Shown here: in pieces, positions 4,731 to 10,370 of the stretch
How positions within the stretch are numbered: the first letter of the stretch is position 1
Layout of the letters: the number at the start of each line of letters is the position of its first letter
Virus record (IMG/VR): IMGVR_UViG_3300032088_000124
Coordinates: 1-20,030 of that record
Reading direction: 5' to 3' (one strand)
DNA from: a virus
Length of the DNA: 20,030 bases
Program-made: the position numbers and the translations under genes
Notes under the pieces: generated by a model
The model's database searches: none
Told to the model about the DNA's origin: nothing
What the model saw: only the letters and a program-made list of their open reading frames with translations

Positions 4731-4840
4731 AACACATCATTGAAAAAATGCGAGAGATTGCAGAGTTGGAATCTCAAATAAGAGAGAAAAAGAAAGAGAT
4801 TGAAATTTTAATGAACAAAGAAGAAAACAAATCAAAATGA
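4727..4840 (+). CDS. 37-aa coiled-coil peptide
   Basis: ATGA overlaps on both sides (with 4479-4730 and 4837-5259) frame a 37-residue ORF. Its product is one continuous charged helix: MKHIIEKMREIAELESQIRE, then KKKEIEILMNKEENKSK, with heptad spacing of Ile/Leu/Met. It is probably a small oligomeric coiled coil. No function can be assigned. Without it there would be an unexplained 106-nt gap, and the coupling at both ends supports translation. Confidence 0.6.
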   Translation: MKHIIEKMREIAELESQIREKKKEIEILMNKEENKSK

Positions 4841-5259
4841 ACACAATTACATTCACATTCAAAGGGGCAGAGATAACAGACCCAACTATGGACGAGACAG
4901 GACGTTTTAAAGTCAATCCTGTAGGATACTATGGAGAGCCATATCTACTAGCATATCAGGACGCAAAGGTCATCGAATTACAGAACCTCATAGATGAGGA
5001 GATAGTAGGGAACTTTTGCCTAGAGGACACAAGCTACTCAAATGACCTCTGTCGCTCTCTGACTATTTTCAAGGGAGATTCATCTATTCAAATCTTCACG
5101 CCAAATCATCCTGATTCTGATGAGGAGAATGAGCAATTTGACACCTACTCTGTAATGTTTGAGGATGCAGAAGGTCTCATATCAAACACCCTAGACGGAG
5201 AGAGCAATCTCACTTATGTCATTGACAAGATTCAGGACTTAATGGATGAGATGAAGTAA
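4837..5259 (+). CDS. Acidic protein of unknown function, 140 aa
   Basis: 140 residues, strongly acidic (NHPDSDEENEQFDTYSV near residue 95), with no membrane segment and no motif I recognise. The N-terminus MNTITFTFKGAEITDPT and the block GRFKVNPVGYYGEPYLLAY look like a beta-rich fold, and the C-terminus (LTYVIDKIQDLMDEMK) is helical. Small acidic early phage proteins are often host-takeover factors or DNA mimics, but nothing specific is visible here. It is followed by a 76-nt gap that holds the tRNA-like mini-helix and a hairpin. Confidence 0.75.
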   Translation: MNTITFTFKGAEITDPTMDETGRFKVNPVGYYGEPYLLAYQDAKVIELQNLIDEEIVGNFCLEDTSYSNDLCRSLTIFKGDSSIQIFTPNHPDSDEENEQFDTYSVMFEDAEGLISNTLDGESNLTYVIDKIQDLMDEMK

Positions 5260-5260
5260 A

Positions 5261-5305
5261 TATCTGAATGGTTCTAGAGGGGTTCGATTCCCCTCGCAGA
5301 TACTA
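5261..5305 (+). ncRNA. tRNA-like acceptor/T-arm mini-helix
   Basis: GAGGGGTTCGATTCCCCTC (5277-5295) is a perfect tRNA T-arm with the invariant loop TTCGATT. It is flanked by TATCTG (5261-5266) and CAGATA (5297-5302), which pair perfectly like an acceptor stem, with only 10 nt (5267-5276) in place of D and anticodon arms. The 3' end continues CTA rather than CCA. Candidates are a tRNA that lost two arms, a tRNA-mimicking RNA element in the mRNA leader, or an attP core copied from the 3' end of a host tRNA. The paired 5' strand argues against a plain attP. No aminoacylation identity can be assigned. Confidence 0.6.
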
Positions 5306-5308
5306 ACC

Positions 5309-5335
5309 GCAGGACTCCTGCATAAAATCCATACA
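5309..5335 (+). promoter_or_regulatory. Leader hairpin 14 nt before start codon
   Basis: GCAGG (5309-5313) pairs with CCTGC (5317-5321) over a 3-nt loop, followed by the A-rich spacer ATAAAATCCATACA and the ATG at 5336. There is no U-tract, so it is not a terminator. Same layout as the elements at 6232, 7312 and 12331. Confidence 0.55.
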
Positions 5336-5788
5336 ATGGAACATTTAACAAAGACCATAGCTGAGGTCAAATCAGCACTAGACCAAGCGACTCAAGTCCT
5401 TGAAGAAAATCAAACGCTTAGAGAGGAGATTAAGAGCCTCAAAGAGAGTCAGACAGGCACAGCGTCCATAGAAGACCTAAAAGTCCTTGAGATGGCTTAC
5501 CAAGCAGGGAGAGACGCTGTCATAGGGCAGTTAAGGTTTGCTAGTTATGAAACTAGTCACGAGATAGAAAAATCTACTTACTCAGATGGCTTTGAAGTCT
5601 CATTTTGTAAAGAGGTAGAGATAGAGATTTCTGTGGATGCTATCATAGATGAATGTTACGAAGAGGAGGAGATGGATAGCGATGACTTTAAGAAGCTACA
5701 GGAGGACATTCAATTCACATTAAAGGCTCAACTGGAGACCGATGTCTTGAATTTAGAGCAGATAACAACTAACAAAATTGAAGCGTAA
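5336..5788 (+). CDS. Coiled-coil protein of unknown function, 150 aa
   Basis: 150 residues. Residues 1-40 form a coiled coil (TIAEVKSALDQATQVLEENQ then TLREEIKSLKES). The middle has EMAYQAGRDAVIGQL, and the C-terminal half is very acidic (DECYEEEEMDSDDFKKLQED). No family recognised. It starts after the hairpin leader rather than by coupling. Its stop overlaps the next ATG (TAATG), so it heads a three-gene run of small helical proteins (5336, 5788, 6036), which may act together. Confidence 0.72.
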   Translation: MEHLTKTIAEVKSALDQATQVLEENQTLREEIKSLKESQTGTASIEDLKVLEMAYQAGRDAVIGQLRFASYETSHEIEKSTYSDGFEVSFCKEVEIEISVDAIIDECYEEEEMDSDDFKKLQEDIQFTLKAQLETDVLNLEQITTNKIEA

Positions 5789-6036
5789 TGAATTACGAAT
5801 TTATAGAAGAACAGATAGCAGTTGTCTTGGAAGACCTTGCTTACCATCAGGAACAATTCAACAAAGCATTAGCAACTCAGGAAGGACTACAAGCGATTGA
5901 AGGAGACTTTAAGGAAAAGCTAGTAATAGAAGCAAGGGATAACGTCAAATGGTTTGGGAAGAGAATAGACCACGACAACAATATGCTTGACGTTTTATAC
6001 ACAGCTAGAGACCTAACCAATAACCCCCCGAAATAA
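5788..6036 (+). CDS. Small helical protein of unknown function, 82 aa
   Basis: 82 residues, almost all helical: an acidic first helix (FIEEQIAVVLEDLAYHQEQF) and a second with EKLVIEARDNVKWFGKRIDH, then a helix with DVLYTARDLTNN ending PPK. No membrane segment and no known motif. TAATG overlaps on both ends place it in the coupled run 5336-6200. A scaffold or adaptor role is possible, but nothing in the sequence specifies it. Confidence 0.7.
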   Translation: MNYEFIEEQIAVVLEDLAYHQEQFNKALATQEGLQAIEGDFKEKLVIEARDNVKWFGKRIDHDNNMLDVLYTARDLTNNPPK

Positions 6037-10107: not shown

Positions 10108-10370
10108 TGGACAGAAGACAAGAACAGAGAGAGAATCTGATGATTCAGATACAAGAAAATGAGTGCATAATAGCTGACGGACTAGACCACGCAATAATAG
10201 GAGTCACAGCAGGAGCAAATATGCAGGTTGTGTATTCAGCGGCTTTAATCATACACCAATACCTCAACGAAGGAATGAACGAAGAGGACGCTCTAGATGT
10301 ATTCTATTTTGATTTAGTAGGAGGAAATCAAAGCGGAGACAATTCCCCTGTTTTTTTATTGGACATTTAG
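10107..10370 (+). CDS. Conserved small phage protein, unknown, 87 aa
   Basis: 87 residues: an N-terminal charged helix (MDRRQEQRENLMIQIQEN), then ECIIADGLDHAIIGVTAG, VVYSAALIIHQYLNEGMNEE and DALDVFYFDLVGG, ending NSPVFLLDI. The arrangement DGxDxAIIGxT, VVYS, ALDxFYFD and PVFL recurs in small proteins of many unrelated phages, as I recall, always of unknown function. No catalytic or binding motif is clear. Start overlaps the methyltransferase stop (TAATG). A 15-nt gap separates it from ninG. Confidence 0.7.
   Translation: MDRRQEQRENLMIQIQENECIIADGLDHAIIGVTAGANMQVVYSAALIIHQYLNEGMNEEDALDVFYFDLVGGNQSGDNSPVFLLDI

What the first reader, a model, noticed from the sequence alone, without database searches (positions are those of the whole stretch)
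5261..5305. tRNA-like mini-helix without D and anticodon arms
A consensus T-arm (GAGGGGTTCGATTCCCCTC) is enclosed by a perfect 6-bp acceptor-like stem, with 10 nt where about 40 nt of D and anticodon arms should be. It sits in a 76-nt gap in an operon and is followed by another hairpin. It could be a tRNA-mimic recognised by RNase P, CCA-adding enzyme or EF-Tu, a decayed tRNA, or an attP core. The paired 5' strand is unexpected for a plain attP.
Basis: partly seen in the sequence, partly recalled or inferred. Interest (0 to 1): 0.72.

Follow-up and report, generated by a model that had tools for sequence, protein, structure and literature searches.

The report
Mini-tRNA mimics punctuating phage operons
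A 45-letter RNA that copies only the acceptor stem and T-arm of a tRNA sits between two genes of this phage, belongs to a large, unannotated family found between genes in phages of many bacteria (and some archaeal viruses), and most likely marks places where host tRNA-processing enzymes cut the long viral messenger RNA.

Summary
It is one member of a structured-RNA family that appears undescribed: no Rfam match, no ARAGORN call, no annotation under most matches, and no paper found in an open-access library. Members occur in phages or prophages of Bacteroidota, Actinomycetota and Bacillota, plus single genomes from other phyla and two archaeal haloviruses. Across 112 distinct sequences all ten variable base pairs show changes on both sides (covariation 0.71 against 0.17 shuffled). 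Invariant parts are a D-loop-like GG connector and the T-loop, i.e. what makes a tRNA elbow; an ACNA-like 3' end is frequent. In five annotated actinophages, 48 copies lie on the coding strand (none on the other) and fill 42 of 67 longer gene gaps, starting about 9 nt after one stop codon and ending about 45 nt before the next start. Decayed tRNA and attP are not supported. Best explanation: phage "mini-tRNA punctuation", intercistronic RNase P (and perhaps RNase Z) processing sites, comparable to t-elements. The structure and gene-gap placement are shown; the cleavage is inferred.

The parts
5257..5259 (+). stop codon (TAA) of the upstream gene (ORF 4837-5259)
5261..5266 (+). 5' strand of acceptor-like stem (TATCTG)
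   Evidence: pairs with 5297-5302; equivalent stem covaries in the family
5267..5276 (+). 10-nt connector AATGGTTCTA in place of D and anticodon arms; AAYGGTTNT in the pattern-selected set, D-loop-like GG at 5270-5271
   Evidence: connector was part of the search pattern, but descriptor-found actinophage elements also carry GG, mostly at the 4th-5th connector position (that descriptor required a GG near the connector start)
5277..5295 (+). T-arm: 6-bp stem GAGGGG/CCCCTC with loop TTCGATT
5297..5302 (+). 3' strand of acceptor-like stem (CAGATA), after one unpaired G at 5296
   Evidence: offset-1 class, 31 of 114 members
5302..5305 (+). ACTA: N73-C74-N75-A76-like 3' end (consensus ACNA in this class; full CCA uncommon)
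   Evidence: actinophages: A 41/50 then C 48/50 right after the stem
5309..5321 (+). small downstream hairpin GCAGG-ACT-CCTGC, not followed by a T run
   Evidence: arms kept, loop changed in L002/L004
5336..5788 (+). downstream gene of unknown function; carried along with the element in relatives
4837..5259 (+). upstream gene of unknown function; unrelated sequence stands here in L002/L004

Best explanation
The element is an RNA signal that imitates the part of a tRNA read by tRNA-end-processing enzymes: a coaxial acceptor/T-arm helix of about 11-12 bp, a T-loop, and a GG in the connector that could stand in for D-loop G18-G19 and complete the elbow. It lies in polycistronic phage mRNA between a stop codon and the next ribosome-binding region. 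Host RNase P would cut at the 5' base of the helix, just after the upstream stop codon; RNase Z or exonucleases may trim or cut after the helix near the ACNA sequence. This would separate cistrons and give the downstream mRNA a new, structured 5' end (or release a ~42-nt mini-helix), setting stability and relative expression of neighbouring phage genes. Shown: sequence, structure by covariation, strand, gene-gap placement, multi-copy use, wide distribution. Inferred: GG/T-loop elbow contact, recognition by RNase P or RNase Z, cleavage, effect on expression.
For: Covariation in 112 distinct sequences: 81.3% of cells paired against 50.5% shuffled, score 0.714 against 0.173, 0/500 shuffles as high for either; all 10 variable pairs have two-sided changes; slid registers fall to 42-56%. 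92 of 114 members have at least 5 of 6 acceptor pairs in either register against 10% when arms are swapped between members. In 5 annotated phages 48 elements, all on the coding strand, 0 on the other, 0 in 50 shuffles, filling 42 of 67 gaps of 50 nt or more; typically ~9 nt after a stop and ~45 nt before a start. In IMG/VR loci only 9 of 78 lie inside a same-strand ORF against 58% of random positions; median 39 nt to the next ATG. Actinophage ends: +1 G 42/50, -1 A 37/50, A then C after the stem 41/50 and 48/50. RNase P reads the T-arm/acceptor stack from the elbow and needs a T-loop but not a D-loop (PMC4919913); acceptor+T-arm model substrates are cleaved (PMC11143913). t-elements are known RNase P/Z signals (PMC8662596; PMC4326828). 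Rfam, ARAGORN and the annotations under most matches show nothing.
Against: No transcript or cleavage data were available. The 3' end is ACNA, rarely ACCA, whereas bacterial RNase P of the common type favours RCCA. In about half the actinophage elements the stack is 11 bp plus a mismatch instead of 12 bp. In the window copy an energy model favours another pairing of the outer part by 1.8 kcal/mol, and 24 of 92 family members do not have both stems in the MFE. The window has a single copy, so 'punctuation' is argued from relatives. Haloviral copies lack the AC.
Confidence: 0.66

Rival explanations
1. Ribosome-directed element: the mini-helix with tRNA-like elbow acts on the ribosome that has just terminated (for example at the L1 stalk or E site) and controls recycling, reinitiation or initiation on the next gene.
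For: Strong placement just after stop codons and before start codons; the elbow motif is also what the ribosomal L1 stalk reads (PMC4919913 and its reference list).
Against: Distance to the next start varies widely (3-250 nt); acceptor-end features (first pair G-C, unpaired A at -1, A-C after the stem) are kept in actinophages, which a ribosome contact does not explain; many gaps in the same operons lack the element.
Confidence: 0.12
2. The released ~42-nt mini-helix is the product: a small RNA acting in trans, for example a decoy for RNase P, CCA-adding or T-loop modifying enzymes, or an anti-defence RNA.
For: Compact, tRNA-enzyme-like fold; up to a dozen copies per genome would raise the dose.
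Against: Each copy has its own stem sequences, and fixed placement between cistrons is not needed for a trans RNA; many phages carry one copy.
Confidence: 0.09
3. mRNA-end protector: a stable hairpin that shields 5' or 3' ends without specific recognition by tRNA enzymes.
For: Stable T-arm helix in gene gaps.
Against: Generic hairpins need no conserved TTCRANN loop, GG connector or ACNA 3' end.
Confidence: 0.06
4. attP core or decayed tRNA gene, carrying a host tRNA 3' half.
For: T-arm consensus resembles tRNA 3' ends; a Bacteroides phage has a true tRNA-Arg next to an integrase.
Against: No matching tRNA end in 395 Bacteroidota genomes; no integrase found among window ORFs scanned; covarying 5' strand; multiple copies with different sequences.
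Confidence: 0.02

Closest known systems
t-elements (plant mitochondria; Haloferax volcanii 5S rRNA leader)
   Same: tRNA-like structures bordering genes that serve as RNase P and/or RNase Z signals for mRNA or rRNA end formation (PMC8662596; PMC4326828)
   Different: Those are heterogeneous and organellar or cellular; this is a uniform ~42-nt fold with conserved connector, spread over phages of several bacterial phyla and repeated within operons; cleavage not shown
Mitochondrial tRNA punctuation
   Same: tRNA structures between genes of a polycistronic transcript mark cuts (established knowledge)
   Different: There the marks are functional tRNAs; here no anticodon, no D-stem
RNase P model substrates (acceptor stem + T-stem + T-loop)
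   Same: Same architecture and size; T-loop needed, D-loop dispensable (PMC11143913; PMC4919913)
   Different: Synthetic, RCCA 3' end, no D-loop-like connector; the phage elements are natural and end in ACNA
MALAT1 mascRNA / menRNA (RF01684)
   Same: Small tRNA-like RNA cut from a longer transcript by RNase P and RNase Z (established knowledge)
   Different: Keeps short D- and anticodon-like arms; eukaryotic; window match only 12.5 bits over the T-loop, far below threshold
Phage phi80 M3 RNA, P1/P7 C4 RNA
   Same: Phage RNAs cut by bacterial RNase P (PMC11143913)
   Different: phi80 M3 lies at the oop position, its sequence has no T-arm, and the family model finds nothing in phi80; C4 was not tested here

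Membership tests
tRNA gene | cloverleaf with D and anticodon arms and an anticodon | tested here: not met
   ARAGORN none; 10-nt connector instead; Rfam tRNA not matched
tRNA gene | acceptor/T-arm stack with TTCRANN loop | tested here: met
t-element (tRNA-like processing signal at gene borders) | tRNA-like structure at gene boundary | tested here: met
t-element (tRNA-like processing signal at gene borders) | cleaved by RNase P and/or RNase Z | not testable with these tools
   needs RNA biochemistry or end-mapping RNA-seq
RNase P substrate | T-loop plus coaxial helix of about 12 bp to the cleavage site | tested here: met
   6-bp T-stem plus 5-7 bp acceptor-like stem; half of actinophage copies have 11 bp
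RNase P substrate | 3' RCCA | tested here: not met
   ACNA consensus; A and C kept, second C mostly not
attP core | identity to a host tRNA 3' end | tested here: not met
   0 of 395 Bacteroidota genomes sampled
attP core | integrase in the same genome | tested here: inconclusive
   none among the ORFs scanned in the 20-kb window, but the phage genome may be incomplete
intrinsic terminator | GC hairpin followed by T run | tested here: not met
   no terminator-like site on the + strand at 4800-5800
Any Rfam 15 family | score above gathering threshold | tested here: not met
   window stretch 5150-5450 has only sub-threshold matches; three multi-copy phage loci give only one true tRNA

The most novel reading that the evidence does not exclude
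Tailed viruses of bacteria and archaea share a compact 'mini-tRNA punctuation' signal: stripped-down tRNA elbows placed between genes so that the host's essential RNase P (and RNase Z) cuts polycistronic viral mRNA at set points, an operon-processing layer of phage gene expression not previously described.
Probability: 0.55. Interest if true: 0.92.

Novelty: new variant of a known kind. Interest (0 to 1): 0.84.

Why it matters
If right, an essential and nearly universal ribozyme, RNase P, would be a routine processor of phage mRNA, and many unannotated gaps in phage genomes would have a meaning. It gives a directly testable model for how phages tune neighbouring genes in long operons, an annotation rule (some annotated starts overlap these elements), natural minimal substrates for the RNase P and RNase Z fields, and possible compact RNA-processing parts for multi-gene constructs. 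Even without the cleavage, a covarying RNA family in phages of several phyla that Rfam 15 does not cover is new.

Tried and rejected
(1) attP: searched the 3' half in 395 Bacteroidota genomes, none. (2) Pseudoknot between GGTT (connector) and AACC (5305-5308): appears in the window MFE, but the downstream partner is not a fixed feature of the relatives' sequences (by eye); it was not counted formally. (3) phi80 M3 RNA as a founding member: its sequence and the model say no. (4) E. coli genomes and plasmids: no match to one 43-59-nt variant each, which shows only that those variants are absent. (5) A cellular rather than phage element: only 2 of 395 Bacteroidota genomes (a lower bound, few candidates scored per genome) and 3 of 118 Streptococcus genomes have it. 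(6) Literature: ten searches found no description in phages; the library is open-access only. (7) The S. pyogenes start-site paper was looked at for prophage processing sites; nothing usable in the main text.

Full report
Between the stop codon of ORF 4837-5259 and the ATG of ORF 5336-5788 lie 76 nt that hold a 6-bp stem (5261-5266 with 5297-5302), a 10-nt connector AATGGTTCTA, a 6-bp T-stem with loop TTCGATT, one unpaired G at 5296 and an ACTA end, followed by a small hairpin at 5309-5321. ARAGORN and Rfam see nothing there. A promoter/terminator scan gives no promoter-like site and no + strand terminator.

The first lead came from a blastn search of phage records: very short, weak matches turned up in unannotated or gene-border gaps of a crAss-like phage, a Corynebacterium phage and Mycobacterium phages. 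Read side by side, these share the connector AAYGGTTYT and the T-loop but have different stem letters that still pair. Nearly all IMG/VR hits turned out to carry flanking complementary stems.

Statistics on 112 distinct sequences: 81.3% of pair cells are standard pairs against 50.5% after shuffling; covariation score 0.714 against 0.173 (0 of 500 shuffles as high); all ten pairs that vary have changes on both sides; sliding the 3' partner by 1-3 columns drops pairing to 42-56%. The two pairs next to the loop never vary because the pattern fixed them. Allowing the one-nucleotide offset seen in the window (31 members against 61 without it), 92 of 114 members have at least 5 of 6 acceptor pairs, against 10% when arms are swapped between members. 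Close relatives show it too: the Cuke and MrMiyagi elements at the same gene junction have T-stems CCGGGG/CCCCGG and CCCTGG/CCAGGG.

The anatomy matches what forms and surrounds the tRNA elbow. The T-loop is TTCRANN. The connector carries GG after about three nucleotides in the pattern set and in most elements found by a looser descriptor that required only a GG near its start; some read ACTGGCAGA, which looks like a tRNA D-loop without its stem. After the 3' strand the offset class has A-C-N-A (A 22, C 23, A 22 of 31), and actinophage elements have A 41/50 then C 48/50, with +1 G 42/50 and -1 A 37/50. That the GG touches the T-loop as G18-G19 do is inference.

Placement is the strongest functional clue. 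In five annotated phages (Mycobacterium phages Cuke, Indlulamithi and Predator, Streptomyces phage Endor1, Gordonia phage VanLee) a descriptor scan finds 48 elements, all on the coding strand, none on the opposite strand, none in 50 shuffled sequences. They occupy 8 of 15, 9 of 14, 5 of 9, 8 of 12 and 12 of 17 gaps of at least 50 nt in the operons examined. Typical spacing is about 9 nt after the upstream stop and about 45 nt before the next start. In IMG/VR contigs, 9 of 78 elements fall inside same-strand ORFs of 80 aa or more (random positions 58%), and the next ATG lies a median 39 nt downstream. With the covariance model alone, Indlulamithi has 10 and Cuke 8 matches, phi80 none.

Distribution: genome-contig hits include Chryseobacterium, Epilithonimonas, Dysgonomonas, Lactobacillus, Streptococcus, Paenibacillus, Lachnospiraceae, Treponema, Glycomyces and a planctomycete; Streptococcus prophages carry close copies. 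That all genome-contig hits are prophages was not checked one by one. Two haloviruses, HF1 and HRTV-5, each have two elements at matching junctions in gaps of about 100 nt, with T-arm and GG but without the AC end. Few cellular genomes have it (2 of 395 Bacteroidota, a lower bound; 3 of 118 Streptococcus). This fits a viral element, either shared or arisen more than once.

For the window itself, contigs L002 and L004 carry a different upstream gene yet an identical element and a related downstream gene (75% protein identity; alignment), so the element travels with the downstream gene or is under selection of its own. L003 is near-identical to the window. The window phage's terminase is closest, at 36-38%, to Bacteroides and Phocaeicola phages.

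Mechanism. Published work says RNase P clamps the elbow and the T-arm/acceptor stack and needs a T-loop but not a D-loop (PMC4919913), and that bare acceptor/T-arm hairpins are substrates (PMC11143913). In plant mitochondria and Haloferax, tRNA-like t-elements at gene borders are RNase P/Z signals (PMC8662596; PMC4326828). From structure and placement I infer that the phage elements are cut by host RNase P at the 5' base, just behind the upstream stop codon, with RNase Z or exonucleases possibly acting on the 3' side. No cleavage data were available, and ACNA rather than ACCA, 11-bp stacks in half of the actinophage copies, and a rival fold in the window copy are the main cautions. Ribosome-directed and trans-acting readings are less likely but open.

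Novelty. No Rfam family, annotation or paper in the searchable library describes it. It works like a t-element or mitochondrial tRNA punctuation if the inference holds, but it is not shown to be one: the defining cleavage is untested. I rate it a new variant of a known kind, with high interest because the structure is established and the mechanism is directly testable in standard laboratory phage-host pairs.

Noticed in passing
L197 (halophage HF1) 10292-10359: A predicted hammerhead ribozyme (annotated in the record) fills a gene gap just before the helicase gene, the same kind of slot as the mini-tRNA elements; a self-cleaving RNA in such a slot fits the idea of RNA punctuation.
   Followed up: no
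L193 15964-16010, L194 14208, L192 12437 and 12720: Annotated start codons of Indlulamithi gp53, Predator gp49 and Cuke genes lie upstream of or inside an element, so these starts may be set too early.
   Followed up: partly
L141 and L142 (Streptococcus phages Javan523 and Javan39): T-arm elements sit in long apparently non-coding stretches upstream of the terminase region; Javan39 has a variant (TATGGTATTA connector) with a 9-bp acceptor-like stem.
   Followed up: partly
window 5309-5321: A 5-bp hairpin directly follows the element; its arms are identical in L002/L004 while the loop changed (ACT to ACA). Function unknown.
   Followed up: partly
L009 93-165: Bacteroides phage Versailles has a full tRNA-Arg about 100 nt before an integrase gene, a likely true tRNA-type att region and a useful contrast.
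   Followed up: no
L206 6668-6739 and L197 40817-40887: Haloviruses HRTV-5 and HF1 keep a tRNA-Thr (noted as truncated and probable attP in HF1) beside an integrase, distinct from their mini-tRNA elements.
   Followed up: no
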